Of a stretch of DNA of 64,000 bases, positions 4,349 to 23,104 are shown piece by piece. The notes beneath the pieces are model-generated. The model did not search any database. It was not told the origin of the DNA and saw nothing but the letters and a program-made list of their open reading frames with translations. This DNA is from Micromonospora okii (GTDB taxonomy: Bacteria > Actinomycetota > Actinomycetes > Mycobacteriales > Micromonosporaceae), in NCBI RefSeq assembly GCF_020884795.1, contig NZ_BBZF01000015.1, forward strand, positions 289,328 to 353,327. Reading direction: 5' to 3'. The position numbers and the translations under genes are program-made. How positions within the stretch are numbered: position 1 is the stretch's first letter; the number at the start of each line of letters is the position of its first letter.

Positions 4349-4849
4349 TCAGGCCGCAGGGCCGGCGTCGCCCTCGGCGGCCGGCGGGAGCGCCCGGTCG
4401 GGGTCCTCCCCCGGCGGCAGCGCCCCGTCGCCGTCCTCCCCGGGCGGCAGCGGGCGGCCGGTGCGGGTGGCGTCCTCCGCCGCCCGCCGGAACGCCCGGT
4501 TGGCCTGGTCGATCAGCGCGGTGGCGTCCGTGCGGCCGTTGACCTGCAACTCCACCTCGACGTCGCCCGCCTGCACGCGGACGCTGACCTCGGTGCGCTG
4601 CTGGTCGACCCAGCTCTGGAGCAGGTTGAACAGCCCCGGCAGCAGCGCCTGGGCCACCACCGCGATGATCACCGCGTCGCTGAACCCGGGCCGGCCGCCG
4701 CTGCGACCGCCGCCCGCCTCCCGCACCGACGCGCGCAGCTCCGGGCGCTGGTGGAGCCAGGCCAGCAGCGGCACCCGGACAGGCGCGGCGGCGCGCGGTG
4801 TCAGCACCAGCCGCACCGGCTGCCGCGCCCCGGTCGAGGTCTCGGTCAC
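4349..4849 (-). CDS. EACC1-like protein (effector-associated constant component)
   Basis: A 166-aa protein that follows the M48 peptidase by 14 bases and starts at a GTG preceded by AAGGAG, so the two are one operon. Residues about 10-110 follow the layout of the EACC1 family. There is a beta-rich start (PVRLVLTP), a WLHQRPELR helix, then a hydrophobic helix (FSDAVIIAVVAQALLPGLF) followed by LLQSWVDQQRTEVSVRVQ and a strand pair ending in a helix. EACC1 proteins are known as constant parts of bacterial conflict systems beside protease effectors. The last 30 residues are tandem PPGED-like repeats and look disordered. Family assignment is from memory of the pattern and is moderate. Confidence 0.55.
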   Translation of the reverse strand: MTETSTGARQPVRLVLTPRAAAPVRVPLLAWLHQRPELRASVREAGGGRSGGRPGFSDAVIIAVVAQALLPGLFNLLQSWVDQQRTEVSVRVQAGDVEVELQVNGRTDATALIDQANRAFRRAAEDATRTGRPLPPGEDGDGALPPGEDPDRALPPAAEGDAGPAA

Positions 4850-4863
4850 GTGGTTGCTCTCCT

Positions 4864-7107
4864 TCACTCGTCGCCGGGCTGGAACGTGATCCGGCCGTCG
4901 GCCACCGTCAGGACGCCGCCGACCGTGAAGGTGTCGTTGACCGTGAACGGGGTGGTGCCGCCGAAGTAGCCGGTCGTGGTGCCGGTCGCCTGAAGCGCCC
5001 CCTGCTTCTCGTACGACGTCGACACCCGGGCCGTGGCGGGCCCGGTCAGCTCCAGCTCGATGTCCGGGTACGTGGTGATCTTCCAGGCGATCTTCTTCAC
5101 CGTGTCGCCGTTGTAGTAGCGGAAGGGGCACCCGGCCGGGGCGGCCACCTTCTGCGCCGCGCACGCGTCGAGGTACCGGCGCACCTCCGCCTCGGCCGCC
5201 GCCCGCGCGGCGGACGTCAGGGTCGGCTCCAGCCGCACGTCGCCCACGCTGTCCTGCCCGGGGAGGACGGCGACGGTCTGCGCCGGGGTCTCGGCGAGCG
5301 CGTTGCTCTGCCCGCCCACCGTGTAGAGGCCGGGCAGCAGCGGCACGCTCTCCCCCGTTCCCTCCGGGGCCGCCGCCACGGCCACCCCGTTGATCGTCAG
5401 CCCCTCCTGCCCGGCGAGGATTCCCAGCGCGGCCGGGCCGGCGGTGATCCGCCAGCGGTGGAAGAGGCCGAGGGTCGCCGACTCCTCCCGCCGCAGCGGC
5501 AGGTCGGCCTTCACCTCCTGGCCGGCGAGGGTGAAGGTGACCCTGGCGACCGCCTCGTCGCCGTCGCGCTCGATCGAGGTCACGTCCACGTCGCCGGGCG
5601 GCTGGTAGCCCTTCCCACGGACCAGCGCGGCGAGCCGGTCCACGTCCCCGGCGGCGGGGCGCGCCGCCGGGCTCAGCAGCTCCACGGCCTCGCGGGCGTC
5701 GCGGTCGGCCAGCGCCGCGAAGTACCCGTCGACCGCCTCCGCCGGCCGGAACAGCGCCCACTGCGTCACCCCGAGCAGGGTGCCGCCGAGGCCGCAGGCC
5801 AGCGCGAGCACGCCGGCCACCAGCACGGCGCGCGGGGAGGCGACCGTTCCCGGCCCCCGGAAGAGACCCTCGGCGGTCACCGGGGCGCGCCCCGGCGCAC
5901 CCTCGCCGACCGGCGCGGTCAGCAGCTCCAGCCGTTCCAGCCGCAGCTCCGAGGCGGGGTGGGTGGCGCAGACCGCCGCGTCCCAGCCGCTGCGGCCGAC
6001 CTCGAAGGACCTGTCCCGCTCCAGCATGTCCCGCATCCCCCGGGCGTGCCCGGCGAGCACGGCGCCGGCGTCGGCGCGGTACTCGGCGGCCCGCACGTCG
6101 CGGGAGTGCAGCGGCAGCACCGCGTACTTCATGGTGAGCAGCACGGGCCAGAAGAAGAGGAACACCACGAAGTTGGTGGCCGGGTGCGGGAAGGCCCGCA
6201 TCAGCCACGTCGGCACCGCGTGCACCAGCACCAGCGGCAGCGCCACCCCGCGCACGAACGCGCTGGTCACCTCGTCGCCGGTGCGCCAGTGCACCAGCTC
6301 GTGGCTGAGCAGCGCCGCGACGTCCTCGTCGGACTCGGCGAGCAGGCTGGTGTTCACCACCACGTGCCGGGCGTACGCGCGGGCGTTGGTGGGCATCGGG
6401 CCGTCCTCGATGAGCAGCCGGGGCACGTTGGGCAGGTCGAGGGCGCGCGCGCAGTCGTACAGGATGGGTCGGAGCCGTTCGGCCTCGCGGCGGCTGAGCC
6501 GGCGGGCCCCCGAGACGGTCAGCAGCCACGGCTCCCACAGGAGCCGGTAGAGGGTGTAGAGCACGCCGATCAGCGCGGCGGCCACCACCATCCCGGCGAG
6601 GCCGGTGAACAGGTTCGCCGGCTCGTCGAACGCGGCTCGCCACGGGTAGACCAGCACCACCAGGAAGCCGAGCAGGAAGCCGATCGCGAAGCCGGCGAAG
6701 CCGCCGAGCACCCCGCCGGAGCGGTCGATGAAGGCGTCGAGCAGCGTGCCCACCAGCGGCGCGTCCCGCAGCGCCTCCGGCACCGCGTCGCCGGCCTGGC
6801 TGCCGCCGGCGACCAGGCCGTAGGCGGCGAGACTGATGCCGCCCCAGACCGCCATGAGCAGGGCGACGGGTACGTAGAACCAGGTGGCCAGGAACGCGCC
6901 GAGCACCCCGCGCCAGTCGCGCAGGACGCCGGCGCGCAGCCAGACGAGGGCGCTCGGATAGCCGAGCGGACGGTTGGCGAAGCTCTGCCCGAGGCGGGAC
7001 CGGTCGCCGGGCGGGGCGGCCGGCTCGGGGCCGGCGGGTGTGTCGGTGGTGGCGGGTATGTCGGTGGCGGCGGGTCCGATCTGGGGGTCGTGGTCCGGGT
7101 CGCGCAC
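4864..7107 (-). CDS. Membrane M48 family metalloprotease with C-terminal extension
   Basis: A 747-aa integral membrane zinc protease. The N-terminal 35 residues are low complexity, followed by hydrophobic pairs at about 60-180. The active site HELVH (near 268-272) is followed by a second membrane pair, and the third zinc ligand is probably the Glu of AAEYRADAG near residue 340. This is the HtpX/Ste24 pattern. After a further membrane helix near 425-450 come about 300 residues that resemble the NTF2-like and beta-domain arrangement of TcaA/YvbJ-type proteins, perhaps extracellular. The GTG at 7107 is preceded by GAGGAG. It is co-transcribed with the EACC1-like gene. Most M48 enzymes are 280-400 aa, so this is a long fusion form. 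Confidence 0.85.
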   Translation of the reverse strand: MRDPDHDPQIGPAATDIPATTDTPAGPEPAAPPGDRSRLGQSFANRPLGYPSALVWLRAGVLRDWRGVLGAFLATWFYVPVALLMAVWGGISLAAYGLVAGGSQAGDAVPEALRDAPLVGTLLDAFIDRSGGVLGGFAGFAIGFLLGFLVVLVYPWRAAFDEPANLFTGLAGMVVAAALIGVLYTLYRLLWEPWLLTVSGARRLSRREAERLRPILYDCARALDLPNVPRLLIEDGPMPTNARAYARHVVVNTSLLAESDEDVAALLSHELVHWRTGDEVTSAFVRGVALPLVLVHAVPTWLMRAFPHPATNFVVFLFFWPVLLTMKYAVLPLHSRDVRAAEYRADAGAVLAGHARGMRDMLERDRSFEVGRSGWDAAVCATHPASELRLERLELLTAPVGEGAPGRAPVTAEGLFRGPGTVASPRAVLVAGVLALACGLGGTLLGVTQWALFRPAEAVDGYFAALADRDAREAVELLSPAARPAAGDVDRLAALVRGKGYQPPGDVDVTSIERDGDEAVARVTFTLAGQEVKADLPLRREESATLGLFHRWRITAGPAALGILAGQEGLTINGVAVAAAPEGTGESVPLLPGLYTVGGQSNALAETPAQTVAVLPGQDSVGDVRLEPTLTSAARAAAEAEVRRYLDACAAQKVAAPAGCPFRYYNGDTVKKIAWKITTYPDIELELTGPATARVSTSYEKQGALQATGTTTGYFGGTTPFTVNDTFTVGGVLTVADGRITFQPGDE

Positions 7108-8581: not shown

Positions 8582-8902
8582 CTACGCGATAGCGGCGATG
8601 TCGCCGTCGTCAAAATAGATCGCTTGGTGGAGGCGCCCACCGAGCGCGGCAGCGTAGCGGGCGAGGACATCCCGTCCGGAGACCTTGCCCTGCTCGATTT
8701 GAGAGACGCGACCCTTGGTAACGCCCATCCGGTCGGCGACCTGCTGCTGAGTCAGGCCGCGGGCGCGGCGCAACTCGGCGAGACGGTGCCCGACCACGCT
8801 GGCGAGCAGTTCCTGCTTGCCAGCCTCGACAGCCTGTTCGCCGCCGGCTCGTTCGACATGCTCGGCGCGGATGTCCTTCCAACGCATGTGACTGCTGCTC
8901 AT
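8582..8902 (-). CDS. XRE family HTH protein, HigA-like antitoxin type
   Basis: A 106-aa protein with a canonical XRE helix-turn-helix at residues about 41-73 (LAELRRARGLTQQQVADRMG, then a recognition helix ending in SQIEQG). The ends MRWKDIRAEHVERAGGEQAV and LHQAIYFDDGDIAAIA match the HigA antitoxins that normally follow a Gp49/HigB-like toxin. No such toxin gene is next to it; the gene upstream is the 412-aa unknown of the restriction operon, 74 bases away. AAAGGAG precedes the ATG. It may regulate the operon or be an orphan antitoxin. Confidence 0.82.
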   Translation of the reverse strand: MSSSHMRWKDIRAEHVERAGGEQAVEAGKQELLASVVGHRLAELRRARGLTQQQVADRMGVTKGRVSQIEQGKVSGRDVLARYAAALGGRLHQAIYFDDGDIAAIA

Positions 8903-8976
8903 GACTGGCGGCTCCTTTCCTTTAGCGGTGTTTCGCCACCCAGCATGAGCCCACGAGGCCGACGGTCGGCATCCGC

Positions 8977-10215
8977 TCATTTTTCGTTGTCCCCGCGCAG
9001 ACGGAGCGCTTGCTCGGCGATCAGGCTGGAGAGCTTGCCCGTCGCCGTTTTGGCCAGGTCGAGGGTCACGTTGCCGAAGCGCATGGCGGCTTCGACGCCC
9101 TCTGCTCCTGTCTCGATCGCCTTGTCCCTCACTTCCATCGCCGCCTCCGTCCATCGCCTCGCCTCCGGCGACTGTTGAGCGCGCTCGATTCCGACCCGCC
9201 CGTGGAAGTCGACGATGGCGGCCGAGATCAGGTTGCTCGACTGCACGACGGCCGGGGCATCGAACGGATGCATCAGCACCTCGGCGTTGGCCTTGCCGGC
9301 AGCCGCATCCATACGGGCCATCAGGCGTTCGGTGCACCGCGAGATAAGTTCCAGCCGGTTCTTCCGGGCCGTCTTCAGCCCGAGGCGGTGCCCGTCCAAC
9401 TCGTCCGGAGACATGTCCAGCACCCGGTCGAGTTCAAGCACGGCGACCGCGTCTTGCAACTGGAAGCAGCGGGCCAGAACAGCGAGCCACTCGCGTGCCG
9501 TGGACTCTGCCTCCTTGGCCGCCTTGGCGAGATCACCGATCCCGGTCTTGCGCTCCAACTTCTCCGCGAGTGCGTCGAGCTGACGCAACGCGTACGCCTG
9601 GGTGTCTGCGATCGTCGTCGGGGCGCCCTGCACCTTCGACCATGTGACCTCGTCGACCCGCCCCTTCTTCGCCTCGCGGACGGTCATGACCTCCTCGATG
9701 ACGAGGCCCACTCCGCCCATGCGGGCCAGCACAGCGTCCTTCTGGGCGCGGAGCACATCGTCGACCTTCTCCTCGATTCTGGCGAGATAGTCGGTGATCT
9801 CCTCCATGGCCTGTTGCATCGCAACCTGCGCCATGATCCCCGCAGCACCAGCCAGAATCGCCGGGTTACCCGCGATCGGTCCGGGCACCTTCGCGATTTG
9901 GAGCCATGACTTGATCGAGCCCGGCTGCCCCACCATCGCATGACTGACACCGGGGGTCTTGCTCGGCATCAGCCCAAATTTTTGAACCCGCTCCGCGGAC
10001 TCCTTGGTCAGCTTTACCCAGCGGCCCGAGTTGGCGGCAACCTCGGAAGCTGCTTGTGCGACCGCAGCTCCCGCGCCGAGAGCAGGCCGGAGCCTTTGCA
10101 GTCCGAGGTCCTTCGCCGGCAGCCCCTCAGAGACGAGGAAGAGTTCGACAGCCATCGGATCGCCGATGACCGCCAGCCCATCGCCGTCGCTGATGAGCTG
10201 AACCTCGTTATTCAC
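8977..10215 (-). CDS. Unrecognised 412-aa protein coupled to the Type I RM operon
   Basis: The GTG start (10215) lies inside the end of hsdM (stop 10208) and has AGGAG six bases ahead, so it is translationally coupled to the methylase. Residues 1-60 form a small alpha/beta-looking region. A hydrophobic stretch lies at about 109-135 (PGPIAGNPAILAGAAGIMAQ), followed directly by a probable coiled coil at about 136-165 (EEITDYLARIEEKVDDVLRA). The remaining 245 residues are predicted mostly helical, ending in basic residues. No nuclease, ATPase or protease motif is visible. Its position argues for a role with restriction, anti-phage defence or its control. Confidence 0.75.
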   Translation of the reverse strand: MNNEVQLISDGDGLAVIGDPMAVELFLVSEGLPAKDLGLQRLRPALGAGAAVAQAASEVAANSGRWVKLTKESAERVQKFGLMPSKTPGVSHAMVGQPGSIKSWLQIAKVPGPIAGNPAILAGAAGIMAQVAMQQAMEEITDYLARIEEKVDDVLRAQKDAVLARMGGVGLVIEEVMTVREAKKGRVDEVTWSKVQGAPTTIADTQAYALRQLDALAEKLERKTGIGDLAKAAKEAESTAREWLAVLARCFQLQDAVAVLELDRVLDMSPDELDGHRLGLKTARKNRLELISRCTERLMARMDAAAGKANAEVLMHPFDAPAVVQSSNLISAAIVDFHGRVGIERAQQSPEARRWTEAAMEVRDKAIETGAEGVEAAMRFGNVTLDLAKTATGKLSSLIAEQALRLRGDNEK

Positions 10216-11707
10216 TATCGGCTCCTGGCACAGGGGCTCCGAGGGCTTCGGCGATGGCGGCAAACTCACGCAGCGCCGCCTGAAGGTCCTCGACGATCTC
10301 CTGCGCGATGACCTCCGGTGGGAGCAGCGCGTCGGCGTCCTCCAGGGAGGCGTCCTTGAGCCAGGTGATGTCGAGGTTCACCTTGTCGCGGACAATTAGC
10401 TCGTCGTACGTGAACGCCTTGAACCGCTCAGTCTCCTCCCGCTTCGACCGGTCCTCGCCCGGCAGGTAGCAGTCCACGAAGTCCTGGAGGTGCTCGCGGC
10501 GCAGCGGGTTCTGCTTGAGTGTGAAGTGCTGGTTCGTGCGGAAGTCGTACACCCAGAGCTTTTGGGTCCACGGCTCCTCGCGGGCGCGCTTGCGCTCGAA
10601 GAACAGCACGTTGGCCTTCACGCCGCCCGCGTAGAAGATGCCGGTGGGCAGGCGCAGCATGGTGTGCAGGTCATACTGCTTGAGCAGCCGGCGGCGGATC
10701 GCCTCGCCCGCGCCGCCCTCGAAGAGCACGTTGTCCGGCAGGACGACCGCCGCCCGCCCGTCGATCTCCAGCAACGAGGCGATGTGCTGGACGAAGTTGA
10801 GCTGCTTGTTGGCGGTGGTCGCCCAGAAGTCCGGGCGCTCGATCTCGCGCTCCTCCCGCGTGGCCTTGCCGTCCTTCCCCACCATCCTGATCGAGGAGCT
10901 GCGCCCGAACGGCGGGTTGGCGAGGACTAGGCTGACCCGCTGACTCGGCTCCCGGCCGAGCGCGTCTCCCACGGTGATGAGCGATGGGCCGTTCGGGGTG
11001 CCGATGCCGTGCAGCAGCATGTTCATGGCTGCCAGGCGCGCCGTGCCGTCGACCAGCTCCGTGCCGGTGATCGCTCCGTTGGCGAGCCGCCTCCGCTGGT
11101 CCGGCGTGAGCGCGTCGCCGTGCTCACGCTGTATGTGCTCGAAGGCCGCCAGAAGGAAGCCGCCCGTGCCGCAGGCCGGGTCGGTGATCGTGTCGTCGGG
11201 GGTGGGCAGCATGCAGTCGACCATCGCGGCGGTCAGGGCGCGCGGGGTGAAGTATTGCCCCGCGCCGGACTTCGCGTCCTCGGCACCCTTGGCCAGCAGT
11301 TCCTCATAGGCGTCGCCCTTGACGTCGACTCCGGCGCTCGACCACTTCTCCTTGTCGATCAGGTCCACGATCAGCCGCTTGAGCTTCGCCGGGTCCTGGA
11401 TTTTGTTCTGCGCCTTGCGGAAGATGGTGCCGAGGGTGCCACCCTCGCGGGCCAGCCCGGTGAGGATGTGCCGGTACTGCACCTCCAGTGCGTCACCCTC
11501 GGCGTCGAGCAGGGTTTGCCAGCTCAGCTCGTCCGGCACGATCTGCTCCGGCCGAAGCCTCCGGTTGGCCCGCTCGTCGGCCATCTTGAGGAACAGCAGA
11601 TAGGTCAACTGCTCCACGTAGTCGATGGTCGAGACGCCGTCGTCGCGGAGCACATCGCAGTAGTTCCAGAGCTTCTGCACCAGCCGGCGCGAATCCACAG
11701 TGCTCAC
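10208..11707 (-). CDS. hsdM: Type I restriction-modification methylase subunit
   Basis: N6-adenine methyltransferase subunit; together with HsdS it methylates the recognition site using S-adenosylmethionine. The N-terminal HsdM helical domain (LVQKLWNYCDVLRDDGVSTI) is followed by the SAM-binding DPACGTGGFLLAAFEHI near residues 171-187 and the catalytic NPPF near 262-265. The 499-aa length is typical. Its GTG start overlaps the hsdS stop (GTGA at 11704-11707), and its end overlaps the next gene by eight bases, so four genes are tightly coupled. Confidence 0.95.
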   Translation of the reverse strand: MSTVDSRRLVQKLWNYCDVLRDDGVSTIDYVEQLTYLLFLKMADERANRRLRPEQIVPDELSWQTLLDAEGDALEVQYRHILTGLAREGGTLGTIFRKAQNKIQDPAKLKRLIVDLIDKEKWSSAGVDVKGDAYEELLAKGAEDAKSGAGQYFTPRALTAAMVDCMLPTPDDTITDPACGTGGFLLAAFEHIQREHGDALTPDQRRRLANGAITGTELVDGTARLAAMNMLLHGIGTPNGPSLITVGDALGREPSQRVSLVLANPPFGRSSSIRMVGKDGKATREEREIERPDFWATTANKQLNFVQHIASLLEIDGRAAVVLPDNVLFEGGAGEAIRRRLLKQYDLHTMLRLPTGIFYAGGVKANVLFFERKRAREEPWTQKLWVYDFRTNQHFTLKQNPLRREHLQDFVDCYLPGEDRSKREETERFKAFTYDELIVRDKVNLDITWLKDASLEDADALLPPEVIAQEIVEDLQAALREFAAIAEALGAPVPGADSE

Positions 11708-13122
11708 AGCCGCAAAGCCTCCTGCTGGTAGTCGTCGCCGGTCACGCTGGTCGGCGGAGCCGACAGTTCCTTCGCGGTACGCCGAGAGCGCCCCCGCTGC
11801 TGCGGGACGCTGGCCGCCCGTTGGGCCTTGATCCGGGCCAGCAACTCCGACGCCGGCTCGTCGTCTGGGTCCTGCGGCACGAGCCTCCCCGCAAACGCCT
11901 CAATGAGAAGGCTCCGTTGCAGGCGGACTCCACGCTCGATTAGGAGTCCAAGCATCTCGCCCGAGTAGGTCAATCCAGAAGCAACGGCAGTCCACCGCGC
12001 AAGGACCGCATCCTGCTCAATCAAATTAGGCACAGGGAGCACCACCCCTTCCAACATTCGCTGATTAATCTTATATATCCCAGCAGTCGTCCGGGCCATA
12101 TTTTCAATTTGCCGCCTCACGAAGGATGAGCTCCAGGCAAGCGACAAATAATCAGGCCGAATCTTAAGAACATCCGGGCGAACGCGAATCAAAGTGTCAG
12201 GAAATGCGACTGGACTTAACACATCACCAACCAAACCACCACGGCCGACCAAGCGCAGGGAGCCATTTCCACGACTTACCAAGAAATCCCCTTGCCGGAC
12301 AAGGAACGGCGCAGCCTGAACATCATCCCAATCACCTGATTTTTGTTTTGTCAGATCAATGCCGCCGTCATGCAAGGCGGTCAGCCGGAGGACGGGAAAA
12401 CCTCCGACACGCGTCGGTACAGAACGGCCATTAATGAGCCGCTCAGCCAATAACGACTTCAGAGGCAACCTCGGAACCCACGAAGCCTCAAGGAGTTGAT
12501 CCCGCAGGCGATGTGCCAAAGAACCGCCCCTCATGCGAGCAGCACGGAGTCCCTGAACAGCAGCGCTGGCTCGCGAAAGGTGGTCATCGAGCTCAGCGAC
12601 GATGCGGCACTGCTCAGAGAGCGGCGGAAGCGGCAGAGGAATATCTTCAACCGTACGCGACGACAGATGCTTGACCGTCACTGAAGAAGTTTTATCTCGA
12701 ATTGCATCTAAATAACCTTGCAACACGAGAACCAGGAAACGTGCGCTATAGAGCTCGGGATTGCGGACAGACAATCTGCAGACACGCTGATTTAATAAGC
12801 CTCGGGGACCCTTCCATATCGCCACGCGGAAATCGCCGTCCATCCCGATGAGAATGTGGCCCGGATAGACCAGATAGCACGACTCGTAACCGCCAGCATA
12901 GTAGGTACCCGATTCAGCCTTGCCCACATCACGAATTCTAATCAGCGGCAGACCTTCTCCATCTTGGTTGAAGTGCCTCGACGAAAAAGCAGCACCGTTT
13001 TGGACGTTGGCGATATCACCCAGGCGAACGCGCTCCCAGGACTCGTGTTTCGATAGCAGCCCGGGATTGAGGCGGGACTCAGCCTCGTCCACGATTTCCT
13101 GCACACTTAGAGTAAGCGTCAC
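11704..13122 (-). CDS. hsdS: Type I restriction-modification specificity subunit
   Basis: This subunit chooses the DNA target for HsdM and HsdR. It has the expected two-repeat layout. The first target recognition domain starts ESWERVRLGDIANVQNG. The first conserved spacer is around LPLPPLSEQCRIVAELDDHL. The second recognition domain starts near VPRLPLKSLLAERLINGRS, and a second spacer has LPVPNLIEQDAVLARWTAV and an EAFAGRLVPQDP end. The length is 472 aa. Base composition drops clearly in the recognition domains (AT-rich runs around 12040-12130 and 12680-12800), as expected when these domains are exchanged by recombination. ATGA overlap with hsdR. Confidence 0.93.
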   Translation of the reverse strand: MTLTLSVQEIVDEAESRLNPGLLSKHESWERVRLGDIANVQNGAAFSSRHFNQDGEGLPLIRIRDVGKAESGTYYAGGYESCYLVYPGHILIGMDGDFRVAIWKGPRGLLNQRVCRLSVRNPELYSARFLVLVLQGYLDAIRDKTSSVTVKHLSSRTVEDIPLPLPPLSEQCRIVAELDDHLSRASAAVQGLRAARMRGGSLAHRLRDQLLEASWVPRLPLKSLLAERLINGRSVPTRVGGFPVLRLTALHDGGIDLTKQKSGDWDDVQAAPFLVRQGDFLVSRGNGSLRLVGRGGLVGDVLSPVAFPDTLIRVRPDVLKIRPDYLSLAWSSSFVRRQIENMARTTAGIYKINQRMLEGVVLPVPNLIEQDAVLARWTAVASGLTYSGEMLGLLIERGVRLQRSLLIEAFAGRLVPQDPDDEPASELLARIKAQRAASVPQQRGRSRRTAKELSAPPTSVTGDDYQQEALRL

Positions 13123-16100
13123 GCCGGCAGCTCCCGGTTCAGCTCGTCCAGTAGTGGCTCGCCGCGGTCGCCGAACGTGTTCGCGTACCCGTCGATGCCG
13201 CCACGTTCCGTGAACGGCGCGCCCTCCAGGTCGTCGGGGGTGATCTCCACGCTGACCGCTATCACGTTCTTAATCCTCTCCAGCCACCACACCTGGTCGG
13301 CAGTGAAGGTAGCCCCCGCCTGCTCCTGCCGCAGCAGCCACCCACGGAAGCGCTCCTCAACGGACGTCCGGTATGGATGAAGCTCCTGGTCAAGCCCCAG
13401 TTCGTACCGGATGAGGGAAACCAGGTCGGTCACCCCGCGCGGGCCTGGCTGCGCCGAGGTCCGTCCGAGCAGGACGTATGCCTTCCACAGCGACTCCGGC
13501 GTCCACGCCTGCGGGGGCCGGCCGATACGGGCGGCCAACTCCCTGAGCTGGTCGTAGCTGATCCGGCCGCGGCTCTCGTAGAAGACCTGCAACACGGCGA
13601 TCTCGTCGCGGTGCTGCTCCAGGTAATCGCGCCAGCTCCGCACGATCACCCGCGCGCGTTCCTCGGGCGGCACGCCGGCCGCCGAGACGAGCTGGTCGAC
13701 GTTGACCTCGTCGATCGTGATGTCGTGCGAGCGCCGGATCTCCAGGATGCGGTCGCGCAGCGGCAGGTTCGCGGCGAGCGGGCGCAGCGCGCCCGCCAGC
13801 AGATCCCGTACGGCCTCCGGTCCGGACTGGTTGGCCGGGTGGAGGCGCTCGGGGGCGACCGCGTCGACCATGCCGCGCACGATCGCCCGCAGCGACTGGC
13901 CGCCCAGCTCGGCCAGCTCGGCGCGCTCGGGGTCGGTGAGCTGGCGGTCGAGCCGGGCCAGCCGGGACGCGAGGGTGGCCACCTCGTCCGCGTCGGCGGT
14001 GAGCGTGCCGGCCTTGCGGAGCAGGTCGCGCAGCGAGACCTGCTTCTCGGAGTGGTGTTGCAGCGGCGACGCCGCGTCCAGGTCGGCCTCGGTGACACCG
14101 ACCGCGTCCACGATCACGAAGCGGTCCTTGACCTGCGCGTCGGGGGTGACGGCCTGGAAGTCGGCCGGGTCGATGGTGCGAGCCCCGCGCCCCTTCATCT
14201 GCTCGAAGTAGGTGCCGCTGCGCACCGGACGGAGGAAGAAGACGCACTCCAGGGGCTTGACGTCCGTGCCGGTGGCGATCATGTCGACGGTCACCGCGAT
14301 CCGCAGCTCGGGGCTGTTGCGAAACGCCTGGATGAGGGCGTCGGGGTTGTCGCCGTCCCGGCGCGACGAGTAGGTGATCTTCTTGGCGAAGTCGTTGCCG
14401 CGCCCGAAGACGTCGCGGACCATCGCCACGATCTCCTCGGCGTGGTTGTCGTCGCAGGCGAAGATCAGCGTCTTCGGCACGGTGGAGCGGCCCGGGAAGA
14501 TCTCGGTGAAGAGGCGCTTGCGGAAGGTATCCAGCACGAGCTTGAGCTGCCCCTTGGAGATTACCGACCGGCCGACCTGGCTGCCGCCGTACGTAAAGTC
14601 GTCCTCCAGCTCCTCGTAGCGCTCGGCGCGGGTGCGGCGGTCCCGGCGCGGCACGACGGTGCCGGGCTCGATGGTTCCGCCGGACTCGGTGATCTCGGTC
14701 TTGATCCGGTACACGTCGAAGTCGACGTTGACGCCGTCGGCGACCGCCTGCTCATAGGTGTACTCCGAGACGAGGTTCTGGCCGAAGAAGCCGAGGGTCT
14801 GCGCGACGGGCGTGGCGGTCAGCCCGACCACGAACGCGTCGAAGTACTCGATCACCGCCCGCCACTTGCCGTAGATCGAGCGGTGGCACTCGTCCACTAC
14901 GATCAGGTCGAACGTCTCCGGCGGGAGCTGCGGGTTGTAGCCGACCTCGGCCGGGGCGTCCAGGTCGTAGCTGTCGTACCTCTGGTCGTCGGCGTCGGGG
15001 TCGGGCAGCTCCGCGCCGCGCAGCGCCCCGTACAGCCGCTGGATCGTGGAGATCACCACGTTGGACGAGTCGAGCATCCCGGCCCCGGTGAGCCGGTCGA
15101 CGGCGTACAGCTCGGTGAACTTCCGGCCGTCGTCCGGCGTCTGGTAGCCGGCGTACTCGCGGAGGGTCTGCTTGCCCAGGTTGTTCCGGTCGACCAGGAA
15201 GAGGACGCGGCGGGCGCGGGCGTGCTTGAGCAGCCGGTAGCTGGCCGTCACCGCCGTGAACGTCTTTCCCGCGCCCGTGGCCATCTGCACGAGAGCGCGC
15301 GGCCGGTCCTCGGCGAGCGATTGCTCCAGGCCCTCGATGGCATCGGCCTGCGCGTCGCGCAGGCCGGCCCGCTTCAGCTCCGGCATCCGGCGCAGCCGGG
15401 CGCGCAGGGTGGGCGCGGCCGGGTCGTCGTCCGCCTCCCGCATCCACCGCGCGAGCGTCTCCGGCCGGTGGAAGGCGAAGACCTCCCGGGTACGCGGGAA
15501 CGGGTCGAGCCCGTTGACGAAGGCGGTCTCGGTGCCGGTGGCGACGTACCCGAACGGAAGGAGCGCGTCGTCGCGCCGCCAGGCGCTCAGCTTCTGCGCG
15601 CGGGTCAGCCCGGCGCGGTACCGGTCGAGCTGCGCCTCCACGCCGCGCGGGGCGGTGCCCTCCCGCTTGGCCTCGATCACGCCGACGAGCTTCTGGTCGA
15701 CGTAGAGCAGGTAGTCGGCGCGGCCCGTCGCCAGGGTCACCTCGCGCACGGCGACGCCCCGCCCGGCGAACAGATCGATTCGGTTGAGGTCCTGCACCAG
15801 CCAGCCGGCGGCGGTGAGCTGGCGGTCGATCTCGACGCGGGTCTGCGCCTCGTTCAGCGGCTCCCGGGAGGCTCGGCGCGCGCGGGCGATGAACGCCTCC
15901 CGCCCGGCGGCGGAAACCTTCGCCGGTTTCGCGCTGTCGAATGCCCGCTGCGCCGCCTCGGCCGCCGGCTCCAGGCGGGCCACCAGCGCGGCGGCCTCCG
16001 TCCGACCGGCGTCGGCGGCCCGTACCGCCGCCTCGGCGGCTTGGGCGGCCTCGGCCTGGGCCTGGGCCAGGGAGGGCTTCCCCGCCAGCAGCAGCTTGGC

Positions 16101-16613
16101 CTCGGCGAGTTCCCGCTTGTACCGGTCGATCTCGGCCTGAAGGCCGGCCGCGATGGCGGCGGGGACCTGGGCGGGCGGCGGGGTGGGCGGCACGAAGCCG
16201 ATCGGTGAGCGGTCGTCGGTCGTGGCGCGGTGGAACCACAGGCCCAGCTCGAAGCAGGTACGCAGCAGCTCCAGCGCCGCGCGCAGCTCGCTGAGGTGCC
16301 CGTGCACCGCCTCGTTACCGACGTTGCGCAGCCGCTCGAAGGCGGCGAACACGTGCGGCACGAGGGTGCCATCGGCGTCGAGCGCCTGCACCTGGTGCAC
16401 GAAGTTGGTGCTCTGTGCCTTCGCCCCGGTGCGCCGGACCAGGTCCCGGGCCAGCACCTCGCCGAAGCTGCGGGTCTTGACCATGGCGGCCTGGGCGTCG
16501 ACGTAGACGAGCGACTCGGCGCCCGCGCCGTACCAGAGCAGCAGCGGGTGCCGCGCCAGAAAGCCGAAGTTGGCGGACTGCTTCGCCAGGCGGCGCAACT
16601 CTTCAGGATCCAC
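13119..16613 (-). CDS. hsdR: Type I restriction enzyme, endonuclease/translocase subunit
   Basis: A 1164-aa motor and nuclease subunit that cuts unmethylated DNA after ATP-driven translocation. It starts with a DUF4145-like helical domain and a long coiled-coil region (about 160-230), then the HSDR N-terminal nuclease region (VREVTLATGRADYLLYVDQK with VIEAKREG, about 285-315). The helicase core follows: MATGAGKTF near 443, DECHRS near 572 and GRGARTID near 803. An EcoEI-type C-terminal domain ends it. The start is a GTG preceded by GGAG. It is the first gene of the operon, so its promoter should lie at 16614-16790. Confidence 0.94.
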   Translation of the reverse strand: MDPEELRRLAKQSANFGFLARHPLLLWYGAGAESLVYVDAQAAMVKTRSFGEVLARDLVRRTGAKAQSTNFVHQVQALDADGTLVPHVFAAFERLRNVGNEAVHGHLSELRAALELLRTCFELGLWFHRATTDDRSPIGFVPPTPPPAQVPAAIAAGLQAEIDRYKRELAEAKLLLAGKPSLAQAQAEAAQAAEAAVRAADAGRTEAAALVARLEPAAEAAQRAFDSAKPAKVSAAGREAFIARARRASREPLNEAQTRVEIDRQLTAAGWLVQDLNRIDLFAGRGVAVREVTLATGRADYLLYVDQKLVGVIEAKREGTAPRGVEAQLDRYRAGLTRAQKLSAWRRDDALLPFGYVATGTETAFVNGLDPFPRTREVFAFHRPETLARWMREADDDPAAPTLRARLRRMPELKRAGLRDAQADAIEGLEQSLAEDRPRALVQMATGAGKTFTAVTASYRLLKHARARRVLFLVDRNNLGKQTLREYAGYQTPDDGRKFTELYAVDRLTGAGMLDSSNVVISTIQRLYGALRGAELPDPDADDQRYDSYDLDAPAEVGYNPQLPPETFDLIVVDECHRSIYGKWRAVIEYFDAFVVGLTATPVAQTLGFFGQNLVSEYTYEQAVADGVNVDFDVYRIKTEITESGGTIEPGTVVPRRDRRTRAERYEELEDDFTYGGSQVGRSVISKGQLKLVLDTFRKRLFTEIFPGRSTVPKTLIFACDDNHAEEIVAMVRDVFGRGNDFAKKITYSSRRDGDNPDALIQAFRNSPELRIAVTVDMIATGTDVKPLECVFFLRPVRSGTYFEQMKGRGARTIDPADFQAVTPDAQVKDRFVIVDAVGVTEADLDAASPLQHHSEKQVSLRDLLRKAGTLTADADEVATLASRLARLDRQLTDPERAELAELGGQSLRAIVRGMVDAVAPERLHPANQSGPEAVRDLLAGALRPLAANLPLRDRILEIRRSHDITIDEVNVDQLVSAAGVPPEERARVIVRSWRDYLEQHRDEIAVLQVFYESRGRISYDQLRELAARIGRPPQAWTPESLWKAYVLLGRTSAQPGPRGVTDLVSLIRYELGLDQELHPYRTSVEERFRGWLLRQEQAGATFTADQVWWLERIKNVIAVSVEITPDDLEGAPFTERGGIDGYANTFGDRGEPLLDELNRELPA

Positions 16614-20548: not shown

Positions 20549-23104
20549 TCAGCGCTCCTCGTCCCGTTCGGACCCCGGCCCGGCGAACGGCACGATCAGC
20601 GCGGTGCGCCGGTCGTGCCGGTCCACCAGCAGCGCCCGGTCGGGGCGCGGGGTGTGGGCGAGGTCGTGCTCGCCCAGGTGCAGCCCCAGCTCCGCGCCGG
20701 GGACGTTCAGCGCGACGAGGCAGGCGACGTCGTCGCGGTGGTGCGCGCCGCCGAGGTCGTCGGCGAGCCGGCGCAGCCCGCGCCACCAGCCGAGCACGTG
20801 CACCCCGCGCCCGGGGCCCTCGCGCAGCAGGGCGCGCAGGTCGTCGTGGCCGGAGCGGAACGTGGTCGGGTCGGTGGCGGCGAGGGCGGCCGAGGCCGCG
20901 TCCGCGCCGAAGACCACGAGATAGGTGCGGCCGACGGGCGGGCGACCGGCGGCGGGTTCGTCGGCGAAGGAGCCGGCGAGGGCGCCGATCCGGTCGCGCA
21001 GGCCGGCCGCGTCGAGTCGCTCGACCGGGTGGCCGGCGGCGGTGAGCGCGGCGGCGGTGGCGTGGGCCACCGGGTCGACGGCGGCGACCAGCCCGGCGAG
21101 CAGGAACCGGGCCGTGCCGGGGGCGTGCTGCCGGGCGAGGCCCAGCGCGGCGGCCCACAGCACGTCCGCGCCGGCGGCCGAGGTGGCGACCACGGCCAGG
21201 TGCCGGCCCGGGGTGGCGTCCAGGGTGAACGAGGCCGTGCTGCCGGCCACGTCGACCGTCCGGCCCACGAGGGCGACCGGGGGCCCGGCACCGGGGTGCA
21301 GCCCGGCGAGGGTGGGATCGTCGGCCAGCCGCGCGGCGGCGTACCCCCGGAAGACGGCGGGCGGTGCGTTGTCGGCCGGCCGGTCCCGCCACAGCTCGTG
21401 GCGCAGCCGAGCCAGCTCGTCTCGGGCGGCGTACGCGTCGGGGAAGCGGATCACCGTGTCCGCGCCGGCCGCCCCGGCGGCCGTGTTGAGCACGGCGGCA
21501 CCGACCGGCAGCGCGTCGGCGGCGGTGTTGAGCGGGTCGAGCACTCCCCCGCCGCCGGGCAGCGCCACCCGCAGCGGGAACTGCCCGAAGATCGCCTCGG
21601 CCCGGCCGTACAGCGACTCGATGCCGGTGGTGGACTGGCTGGCCAGGACCAGGTGGACCCCGTACGAGCGGCCCTTGCGGGCCAGCTCCTCCAGCAGGTC
21701 GACGGCCTCCCGGGCGAGGGCGTCGGTGCCGGCGAGCAGCACCTGGAACTCGTCGACGACCGCCACGATCCGGGGCACCGCCGCGTCGGCGGGCAGGTCG
21801 GCCAGCTTGGTGACGCCGTACCGCTTGAGGACGGTCGCTCGCCGGTTCAGCTCCCCGCGCAGCTCGCGCAGGACGGCCAGGCCGTACTCCCGGTCGGACT
21901 CGATGCCGACCACGCGGGCGTGCGGCAGCCAGGACGGGTCCCGCTCGGTGGGGACGAACTCGGTGAAGCTGACGCCCTCCTTGAAGTCGAGCAGCCAGAG
22001 CTGGAGCTGCGCCGGGGAGTAGCGGGCGGCCAGCCCGTACAGGGCGTCGAGCAGGAAGACCGTCTTGCCGGCGCCGGTGCGCCCGGCGACCAGCCAGTGC
22101 GGGGTGGCGTCGTCGAAGGCGACGGTGACCGGCTGCCGCCCGGCCCGGCCGACCACGGTGGACAGCCCGGCGGCGGCCGAGCCCGCCCAGCGGCGGCCCG
22201 GCAGCAGGTCGGCGAAGGCGGGTGGGAGGTCGCGGCGGGCCGCCGGGGCGAGGTGCGCGGCGAGGGCGGTCACGGTGGCCGGCGGCAGGTCGCCGTCGGG
22301 CACGACGGGGGCGGCCAGCCCGGAGCCGTCGGGGCTGAACGGGTGGCCGGGCGGGTCGCCGACGTGGGCGTACCGCTGCATCAGGCGCAGCGCGGTGGCC
22401 GCGCCCAGCGGCGGCGGCGCGTCGGCCCCGGCGGCGGCCCGGTGGCCCGCGAGCAGGACGCAGACCGCCGCCGACGGGCCGGCGTGGGTGAGCGCGGCGA
22501 GCCGGGCCAGTTCCCGGGCCGGGGGCGCGGCGGCGGCGACCAGCACCAGCAGCTCCCGGTCGGTGGCGGTGGCGTGCTGCGCGGCGCGGGCGTGCCGCTC
22601 GGCGGAGTCGAGCAGCGCGGCGACCTCGGCGTCGGTGGTGGCGGTCGGGGCGAGCACCCCGGCGTCGACGAGGGGGCGCAGCGGCAGGAAGGCGGCCCCG
22701 AAGGCGACCGTGTCGATCCCGGCGACCCGCACGGTGCCGGCGGGGGCGGTGGCGAGCAGCCGCAGCACCACGGCGCGCAGCAGCTCGCCGACGCGCGGGT
22801 CGCGGGCGTCGGCGTCCACGGTGAGGTGGCAGCCGCCGCCGAGCGGCACGACGACGGGGAAGCCACCGTCGAGGGTGGTCGCCTCGCCGATGCGCACGGC
22901 GGCGGGGACGTCGGTGAGGGCGGTGACGCCCGGGGTGGGCGCGGCGAGCCGCCCGCCGACGCGGGCCAGCCCGGCGACGAGGTCGGCGGCGGTCGGGGCG
23001 GCGGGCCCTGGTGCGCCGAGGGCCCCCCGTGCCCGTTCCAACCGGTCCCGGGCCTGCCGGTGCGCGGTGACCGCCTGGCCGTACGCCGCCGCGAGCCTGC
23101 CCAC
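20549..23104 (-). CDS. FtsK/SpoIIIE domain ATPase, 851 aa
   Basis: A P-loop translocase of the FtsK/SpoIIIE superfamily without the membrane domain of true FtsK. The first 330 residues are an alpha/beta region of unknown type. The ATPase core has VAGRTGAGKTVFLLDALYG (Walker A near 340) with a LLDFKEG motif, and IVAVVDEFQVLLAG (Walker B near 449), then SQSTTGIESLYG. The last 300 residues form another alpha/beta module. True chromosome FtsK would carry four N-terminal membrane helices and a gamma domain, both absent. Partner is the membrane protein downstream. It may pump DNA or protein. The start is a GTG. Confidence 0.85.
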   Translation of the reverse strand: MGRLAAAYGQAVTAHRQARDRLERARGALGAPGPAAPTAADLVAGLARVGGRLAAPTPGVTALTDVPAAVRIGEATTLDGGFPVVVPLGGGCHLTVDADARDPRVGELLRAVVLRLLATAPAGTVRVAGIDTVAFGAAFLPLRPLVDAGVLAPTATTDAEVAALLDSAERHARAAQHATATDRELLVLVAAAAPPARELARLAALTHAGPSAAVCVLLAGHRAAAGADAPPPLGAATALRLMQRYAHVGDPPGHPFSPDGSGLAAPVVPDGDLPPATVTALAAHLAPAARRDLPPAFADLLPGRRWAGSAAAGLSTVVGRAGRQPVTVAFDDATPHWLVAGRTGAGKTVFLLDALYGLAARYSPAQLQLWLLDFKEGVSFTEFVPTERDPSWLPHARVVGIESDREYGLAVLRELRGELNRRATVLKRYGVTKLADLPADAAVPRIVAVVDEFQVLLAGTDALAREAVDLLEELARKGRSYGVHLVLASQSTTGIESLYGRAEAIFGQFPLRVALPGGGGVLDPLNTAADALPVGAAVLNTAAGAAGADTVIRFPDAYAARDELARLRHELWRDRPADNAPPAVFRGYAAARLADDPTLAGLHPGAGPPVALVGRTVDVAGSTASFTLDATPGRHLAVVATSAAGADVLWAAALGLARQHAPGTARFLLAGLVAAVDPVAHATAAALTAAGHPVERLDAAGLRDRIGALAGSFADEPAAGRPPVGRTYLVVFGADAASAALAATDPTTFRSGHDDLRALLREGPGRGVHVLGWWRGLRRLADDLGGAHHRDDVACLVALNVPGAELGLHLGEHDLAHTPRPDRALLVDRHDRRTALIVPFAGPGSERDEER

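What the first reader, a model, noticed from the sequence alone, without database searches (positions are those of the whole stretch)
8582..16613. Type I restriction operon extended by an unrecognised coupled gene
hsdR, hsdS and hsdM overlap by four bases at each junction, and hsdM overlaps by eight bases with a 412-aa gene that carries a hydrophobic stretch and a coiled coil but no known defence motif. Overlap of this kind normally marks proteins made in fixed ratio. A fourth, perhaps membrane-linked, partner of a Type I enzyme could be a regulator, an abortive-infection backup or a sensor. The order R-S-M with an added gene and an XRE gene differs from the textbook unit.
Basis: partly seen in the sequence, partly recalled or inferred. 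Interest (0 to 1): 0.72.

Follow-up and report, generated by a model that had tools for sequence, protein, structure and literature searches.

The report
Portable gene inserted behind restriction operon
The unknown gene overlapping the end of this bacterial DNA-cutting defence operon is not a fixed fourth part of that enzyme but a travelling gene that in many actinobacteria sits behind several different antivirus systems, so it may be an unstudied defence gene of its own.

Summary
In detail: hsdR, hsdS and hsdM overlap by 4 nt each, and a 412-aa gene (P412) overlaps hsdM by 8 nt, with an XRE gene 74 nt further on. The reading as a fixed fourth partner of the Type I enzyme fails. Five related genomes carry the same hsdRSM operon (HsdM 90-92% identical) without P412 behind it. 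In one of them hsdM is followed 20 nt later by the same XRE gene, so P412 was inserted between the two. The insertion junction supplies the last codons of hsdM and so creates the overlap.

P412 is an unnamed family, found in 31 of 394 sampled genomes of the class (27 long matches). It recurs as the next gene behind unrelated defence operons: ARMADA-type, another Type I architecture, PglX-type and Gabija-like. The tree requires several independent partner changes, and presence/absence pairs exist at three systems. Outside Streptomyces and Micromonospora the link is weak.

Most likely it is a portable accessory antiphage gene: a helical bundle with an 11-residue-repeat tail. Its defence role is inferred and its mechanism open. 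A membrane-spanning segment is not supported. Embedded defence cassettes are known; this family appears uncharacterised.

The parts
13119..16613 (-). hsdR, 1164 aa, Type I restriction subunit (DUF4145 - ResIII - EcoEI_R_C)
11704..13122 (-). hsdS, 472 aa, specificity subunit; 4-nt overlap with hsdR
10208..11707 (-). hsdM, 499 aa, N6-adenine methyltransferase subunit; 4-nt overlap with hsdS; its last codons (10235-10208) lie outside the homology with the P412-less relative
8890..10235 (-). inserted segment (1346 bp) relative to the P412-less operon of G012 (L104): hsdM homology stops at 10236, XRE homology resumes at 8889
8957..10227 (-). part of the insert shared with P412 loci elsewhere (82-84% nt): ribosome-binding leader CCAGGAGCCGATA, gene, and up to about 20 nt after its stop
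8977..10215 (-). P412: 412-aa uncharacterised protein; N-terminal region of unclear fold, helical bundle (about 112-341), 11-residue-repeat tail; dN/dS 0.20-0.41 against six homologues
8582..8902 (-). xre: 106-aa XRE-type DNA-binding protein, in L104 directly behind hsdM (90% identical)

Best explanation
P412 is an autonomous, horizontally moving accessory gene of actinobacterial defence loci. In this genome it was inserted between hsdM and xre of a pre-existing hsdR-hsdS-hsdM-xre operon; it keeps its own ribosome-binding site and is probably transcribed with the hsd genes. Shown: the insertion, its junctions, the shared leader, the repeated docking behind unrelated defence operons, purifying selection. 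Inferred: that it is itself antiphage, most likely a second-line factor acting when restriction fails. It probably works as an oligomerising helical-bundle protein that binds a membrane or phage surface through its 11-residue-repeat tail. It needs no specific contact with HsdM.
For: Insertion: L104 (G012) has hsdM stop - 20 nt - xre; the window has 1346 bp between the same homologous blocks. The hsdM/P412 junction lies within 9 nt, and the leader CAGGAGCCGAT(A) is shared with P412 loci elsewhere. Docking: of 79 called loci (from the best 80 of 247 relatives; L078 not called), the next same-strand gene upstream is an ARMADA-type methyltransferase in 15 plus a 55-aa piece in 1, a Type I HsdR in 7 plus its last fifth in 1 (2 more one gene away), a PglX-type gene in 4 (one of them only its last quarter), Gabija-like helicase/OLD-type nuclease in 2, an MkoA-like helicase in 1. 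Sample not chosen by context: in 246 Streptomyces genomes P412 occurs in 26; in 8 of the 10 genomes that hold both, it lies 66-142 nt behind the ARMADA-type methyltransferase. Clean swaps: L195 vs L184 (P412 or an EcsC-like gene between 91% and 95.5% identical flanks) and L187 vs L172 (1467 bp against 19 bp). Tree: at least 6, 5 and 2 label changes forced for ARMADA-like, Type I and PglX links. Published precedents of embedded cassettes that are independent defences: TgvAB, DarTG2.
Against: No phage test exists; no fold or motif shows an activity. 46 of the 79 loci show none of the partners just listed; in two of these (L044, L080) another defence gene stands one place further up, and only part of the neighbours was scanned. 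21 unselected loci outside Streptomyces have mixed neighbours, many of them ordinary. Only 8 of 40 Streptomyces genomes with the ARMADA-type gene and 2 of 53 with a c7-type HsdR match have P412 behind it. The membrane step rests on a repeat pattern of low hydrophobicity. 5 of 16 ARMADA-linked copies carry a different leader.
Confidence: 0.6

Rival explanations
1. P412 is a plug-in modulator shared by methyltransferase-based defence systems: it binds the DNA methyltransferase or its complex (HsdM, PglX, ARMADA PglX-like) and tunes methylation versus attack.
For: The gene directly upstream is a DNA methyltransferase in the ARMADA-type loci (15 full-length), the PglX-type loci (4) and the window (hsdM).
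Against: In the other Type I architecture it follows hsdR; it also follows Gabija-like and helicase genes that are not methyltransferases. Most partner systems lack it, it is intact beside truncated partners (L017, L047), and many copies stand alone.
Confidence: 0.15
2. Neutral or non-defence passenger that accumulates in the same recombination hot spots as defence operons.
For: The 3' ends of ARMADA-type and Type I operons hold many different genes; unselected loci outside Streptomyces show many ordinary neighbours.
Against: 8 of 10 Streptomyces genomes with both genes have P412 immediately behind the ARMADA-type methyltransferase on the same strand; repeated independent links to several kinds of defence; purifying selection.
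Confidence: 0.18
3. Dedicated fourth subunit of this Type I enzyme made in fixed ratio with HsdM through the overlap.
For: 8-nt overlap and same strand.
Against: Not behind hsdM in 5 of 5 closest hsdRSM operons, one of them seen for only 0.24 kb; the overlap is an insertion junction; no window-type hsdM beside any of 84 homologues.
Confidence: 0.04

Closest known systems
TgvAB embedded in the Vibrio Type I operon (PMC11411939, passages read)
   Same: Genes of unknown function inside a Type I operon that turned out to be an independent defence, not an enzyme subunit
   Different: Two-gene GmrSD-like system between hsd genes; P412 is one gene at the 3' end with no nuclease family match
DarTG2 in the RptR-RMS-DarTG-M48 island (PMC12255303, start of abstract and passages read)
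   Same: Foreign defence genes lodged at a fixed slot of a Type I operon, with other genes at the same slot in other genomes; a small DNA-binding regulator belongs to the locus
   Different: Slot is between hsdS and hsdR; toxin-antitoxin pair; RptR is encoded at the start, the XRE gene here at the end
ARMADA Type I (PMC12458937, abstract, section 5 and passages read)
   Same: The c5-c6-c4 operon beside which P412 is most often found has the described order: YprA/DruE-like helicase, BrxHII-like helicase, PglX-like methyltransferase
   Different: The parts read describe no P412-like gene for ARMADA Type I; P412 is optional there
JukB (PDB 9jht; role from a review, PMC13282480, passages read)
   Same: Top VIA-align row for the full-length model, Z 11.5 over 157 residues, 3.2 A
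   Different: 9% identity; Z 10.3 with the better core model, below MukF (12.1) and inside the range usual for helical bundles; no JukA gene was sought

Membership tests
Type I restriction-modification (hsdRSM) | HsdR, HsdS and HsdM with their family domains | tested here: met
Type I restriction-modification (hsdRSM) | P412 conserved as a component in close relatives of the operon | tested here: not met
   0 of 5 operons with HsdM 90-92% identical have it behind hsdM; one (G001) has only about 0.24 kb of contig there
Embedded accessory defence cassette | Present or absent at the same site in otherwise matching defence operons | tested here: met
   window vs L104, L195 vs L184, L187 vs L172
Embedded accessory defence cassette | Occurs with several unrelated defence systems | tested here: met
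Embedded accessory defence cassette | Antiphage activity of its own | not testable with these tools
   needs plating assays
ARMADA Type I (partner operon c5-c6-c4) | Gene order YprA-like helicase, BrxHII-like helicase, PglX-like methyltransferase | tested here: met
   on L027; c5, c6 and c4 all present in the same 15 loci
ARMADA Type I (partner operon c5-c6-c4) | Helicase falls in the ARMADA clade of the YprA tree | not tested
   no tree of the helicases was made
BREX (partner in four Micromonospora loci) | PglX methyltransferase | tested here: met
   PADLOC PglX profile over 1-1196 in L038; full-length also in L014, in two pieces in L024, only the last quarter in L017
BREX (partner in four Micromonospora loci) | Other BREX genes (PglZ, BrxC and so on) in the operon | not tested
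   apart from one downstream gene of L014 (no match) the other neighbours of these four loci were not scanned
JukB-like pore-forming effector | JukB fold | tested here: inconclusive
   Z 11.5 / 10.3, helical bundles score alike
Transmembrane protein | A hydrophobic segment long and strong enough to span a membrane | tested here: not met
   19-residue maximum 1.43; >=1.6 in 9 of 79 members

The most novel reading that the evidence does not exclude
P412 is a universal plug-in effector: a single helical protein that actinobacteria bolt onto the 3' end of mechanistically unrelated immune systems (Type I restriction, PglX/BREX, ARMADA, Gabija-like) and that converts failure of any of them into a common last-resort response at the membrane.
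Probability: 0.17. Interest if true: 0.82.

Novelty: new member of a known kind. Interest (0 to 1): 0.52.

Why it matters
It shows that an overlapping, apparently coupled gene can be a recent insertion, so overlap alone is weak evidence for a complex. It also gives an unnamed gene family, found in about 8% of sampled genomes of the class, that repeatedly docks behind at least four kinds of defence operon. Natural with/without pairs at three systems make its contribution directly testable.

Tried and rejected
Searches that found nothing usable: Pfam, PADLOC, NCBIfam and PDB sequence for P0001 and a family profile against PDB; phage records; viral contigs, 489 stretches, none confirmed. Fold searches: Foldseek against PDB and viral models, no match at E <= 0.001; VIA-align rows are typical helical-bundle values (MukF, syntaxin, JukB, designed bundles), so no function is drawn from them.

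Considered and dropped: transmembrane anchor; restriction-specific partner; phage-borne gene. The c16 'genes' (83-1919 aa, opposite strand) are miscalls: tblastn finds c5 and c6 intact on the other strand in the same loci (L023, L053, L057, L062). Short upstream pieces that labels c0 (L028, L031, L092) looked like second P412 copies but are not related to P412; I dropped that idea. Some c7 genes (L058, L068, L071) are only about 24% identical to the main c7 group; PDB searches show that L071 and L058 are HsdR too.

Paper searches and passages of a BREX survey (PMC12839542; 12 of 27 places shown) gave no account of this family; these are word searches over an open-access library and cannot prove absence.

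Rows dropped before counts: gene calls failed for L011, L012, L013 and L078, so 80 of 84 loci were called, 79 of them. L072 and L078 were left out of A2 and of the tree (80 rows, labels set by hand; L081's 55-aa c4 piece and the one-gene-away L056 and L058 counted as linked; tblastn finds no longer c4 match in L081). A3 used 63 of the 79 rows of A2. The leader comparison used 11 of 16 ARMADA-linked and 6 of 10 Type-I-linked loci; the five ARMADA-linked ones left out (L059, L081, L085, L088, L091) visibly have other leaders, so 79% against 59% shuffled holds for the chosen set only. Class sample: of 31 genomes with a match, 25 loci were fetched; the rest are the window, G012 (fetched) and four fragmentary matches. 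Streptomyces loci were fetched for 25 of 26 hits (G579 not). The neighbour scan of unselected loci used 106 genes of 170 aa or more from 21 of 25 loci: L149 and L154 were left out because already linked (Type I, ARMADA-type), L158 and L171 had no such gene within four places. PADLOC tallies there list families, not genes, so no defence fraction is given. The insertion count counts L006 and L116, one locus, twice.
Full report
WHAT IS THERE. The window lies in a genome of 6.44 Mb, contig C15; the nearest named P412 relatives are Micromonospora. On the minus strand hsdR (16613-13119), hsdS (13122-11704) and hsdM (11707-10208) overlap by 4 nt each. A 412-aa gene, called P412 here, runs 10215-8977 and overlaps hsdM by 8 nt. 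An XRE-type gene (8902-8582) follows after 74 nt. Pfam, PADLOC and NCBIfam confirm the three hsd subunits and the XRE protein. P412 matches no family above cut-off and no PDB sequence credibly.

THE OVERLAP IS AN INSERTION JUNCTION. Ten of 61 searched genomes carry a relative of the window HsdM; five besides the window's own are 90-92% identical. In those five (L104-L108) the order hsdR-hsdS-hsdM is the same and no P412 follows. L106 ends about 0.24 kb after hsdM, so only four give a long view. In L104 the hsdM stop is followed 20 nt later by an XRE gene 90% identical to the window's; it was not found in the other four. L104 and L105 also share flanking genes with the window. Aligned to L104, window homology stops at 10236, inside the last codons of hsdM, and resumes at 8889, at the start of xre: a 1346-bp insert. 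Aligned to P412 genes at other loci (L014, L015, L020, L024; 82-84% nt), homology starts at 10227, 12 nt before the P412 start codon. These 12 nt are the family's ribosome-binding leader CAGGAGCCGAYR. So the last codons of hsdM are read from the inserted gene's leader. The stop that ends hsdM falls at nucleotides 6-8 of P412, where 32 of 80 homologues also have a stop, so the 8-nt overlap is a by-product. Two of the genomes with a P412-less hsd operon, G012 and G025, have a P412 gene elsewhere.

THE FAMILY. In a sample of 394 genomes of the class, 31 have a match, four of them only fragments. A scan of one genome per species gave 247 relatives, of which the best 80 were fetched; all 80 titles name actinobacteria. 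Plasmid records: 4. Phage records and viral contigs: none. dN/dS between the window gene and six homologues is 0.20-0.41, so it is under purifying selection.

WHERE IT SITS. Of 79 called loci among these 80, the next upstream gene on the same strand is: an ARMADA-type methyltransferase (c4) in 15, plus a 55-aa piece in L081; a Type I HsdR (c7, behind two methyltransferase genes and usually a called hsdS) in 7, plus its last fifth in L047 and two cases one gene away (L056, L058); a PglX-type gene (c20) in 4, complete in L014 and L038, split in L024 and only the last quarter in L017; Gabija-like genes in 2 (L048, L074); an MkoA-like helicase in 1 (L019). A further plasmid locus, L010, is c7-linked. 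L044 (NERD helicase) and L080 (Wadjet JetC, with an 857-nt gap) have such a gene one place further up. The other 44 have no recognised defence gene there, but only part of their neighbours was scanned. c5, c6 and c4 occur together in the same 15 loci, in the order that a preprint gives for ARMADA Type I: YprA-like, BrxHII-like, PglX-like (PMC12458937, abstract, section 5 and passages read). Whether the PglX loci hold a whole BREX operon was not checked.

SAMPLE NOT CHOSEN BY CONTEXT. In 246 Streptomyces genomes P412 is in 26, a c4 match in 40 and a c7 match in 53. Ten genomes hold both P412 and c4; in 8 of the 10 P412 lies 66-142 nt behind c4 on the same strand, in one (G522) about 2 kb away on the other strand, in one (G513) far off. 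Two lie 127-131 nt behind c7 (G248, G658) and a third, G513, 156 nt behind a more distant c7. So 11 of 26 are directly behind one of these two systems. A chance neighbour among several thousand genes per genome would give far less than one such case (my estimate, not a tool result). Conversely most such systems lack P412. In the class sample, 2 of 25 fetched loci are linked in this way, both in Streptomyces (L149, L154). In 21 of the other 23, none in Streptomyces, neighbours are mixed: a few SNF2-type and other conflict-related hits and many ordinary genes. The link is therefore strong in Streptomyces, present in Micromonospora, and weak elsewhere.

SLOT AND SWAPS. The place behind c4 or c7 holds different genes in different genomes: P412, coiled-coil-like proteins, an EcsC-like protein, a PASTA protein and others. 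Two of the alternatives end in a hydrophobic stretch (read by eye). L195 and L184 share 91% identical DNA up to 42 nt past hsdR and 95.5% identical DNA afterwards, with P412 (1.5 kb) in one and another gene (0.8 kb, same cluster as the EcsC-like gene of L183) in the other. L187 differs from L172 by 1467 bp against 19 bp at the same place. The family tree (80 rows, quick method) needs 19 label changes, at least 6 for ARMADA-type, 5 for Type I with c7 and 2 for PglX on strongly supported branches; labels are still clustered (31.7 in shuffles). The window's nearest row is a PglX-linked gene (L014, support 93). The 45-nt leader is 79% identical between ARMADA-linked and Type-I-linked copies against 59% in shuffles, 65% against 60% in the next 45 nt, and no better than shuffles further up; this used 11 of 16 and 6 of 10 loci, and five ARMADA-linked copies have another leader.

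PROTEIN. AlphaFold2 on 79 sequences gave mean pLDDT 66 for the whole protein, with a poorly resolved N-terminal third. Residues 112-351 alone gave 90.5: a 65-residue helix followed by four more long helices. No Foldseek match passes E 0.001. VIA-align lists MukF (Z 12.1), syntaxin (11.1) and JukB (10.3; 11.5 with the full model) among many bundles; the tool warns that such values are common for bundles, so I draw no homology. JukB is described as a pore-former recruited to early infection vesicles (review passages); this is only a lead. No transmembrane helix is likely. The tail shows units of about 11 residues (RDKALETGADG / VDAARRLGNET / LDRAKSVTGKL), and some members carry extra units: of the 14 insertions of 5 residues or more counted there, 3 are of 11 and 3 of 22 residues (one locus counted twice), the others of 7, 10, 29 or 35. 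By recall, 11-residue repeats occur in surface-binding amphipathic proteins; hydrophobicity here is low.

HOW IT MOST LIKELY WORKS. Shown: insertion, leader, repeated docking, selection. Inferred: an accessory antiphage gene that benefits from the transcription of resident defence operons. The published precedents are TgvAB inside a Vibrio Type I operon, which protects without HsdR restriction, and DarTG2 inside an E. coli one, with other genes at the same slot elsewhere. The mechanism step, an oligomerising bundle acting at a membrane or phage surface, is my best guess, at roughly one in four.

VERDICT. Observation confirmed; the fixed-partner reading fails; the defence link survives in a broader form. 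The kind of arrangement is known; the gene family is not described in what I could search.

Noticed in passing
window 4349-7107 (-): EACC1 (Effector Associated Constant Component 1) domain protein next to an M48 peptidase, a possible second conflict system about 1.5 kb beyond the xre gene; the peptidase was not found in the fetched hsd loci of relatives.
   Followed up: partly
L088:12193-15042, L194:4427-7285, L174:3125-5452: Cluster c14, a roughly 480-970-aa protein as called; no Pfam match for the L088 and L194 copies, no PADLOC match for the L088 copy. It recurs beside P412 and behind ARMADA-type operons in Streptomyces.
   Followed up: partly
L173:2332-3759, L175:6569-7744, L183:2328-2996: Alternative occupants of the slot behind ARMADA-type and Type I operons: two proteins ending in a hydrophobic stretch and an EcsC-like protein, of unknown function.
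   Followed up: partly
L104-L108: HsdS is only 34-52% identical to the window's over the aligned parts while HsdM is 90-92%: the specificity subunit appears to have been exchanged.
   Followed up: no
upstream of P412 in Streptomyces loci, e.g. L027, L054: The P412 leader often carries a GGCGATCGCC palindrome about 60 nt before the start codon; role unknown.
   Followed up: no
L017, L047: Intact P412 directly behind truncated partners (last quarter of PglX, last fifth of HsdR): the tail gene outlives the system in front of it.
   Followed up: partly
L197: G632: Type I hsdR followed by an AIPR gene, a c8 gene (kinase-like by its cluster), a UvrD helicase and then P412, all on one strand; the helicase belongs to the same cluster as the one beside P412 in L074.
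   Followed up: partly
window 20549-23104 (-): FtsK/SpoIIIE-family ATPase of 851 aa.
   Followed up: no
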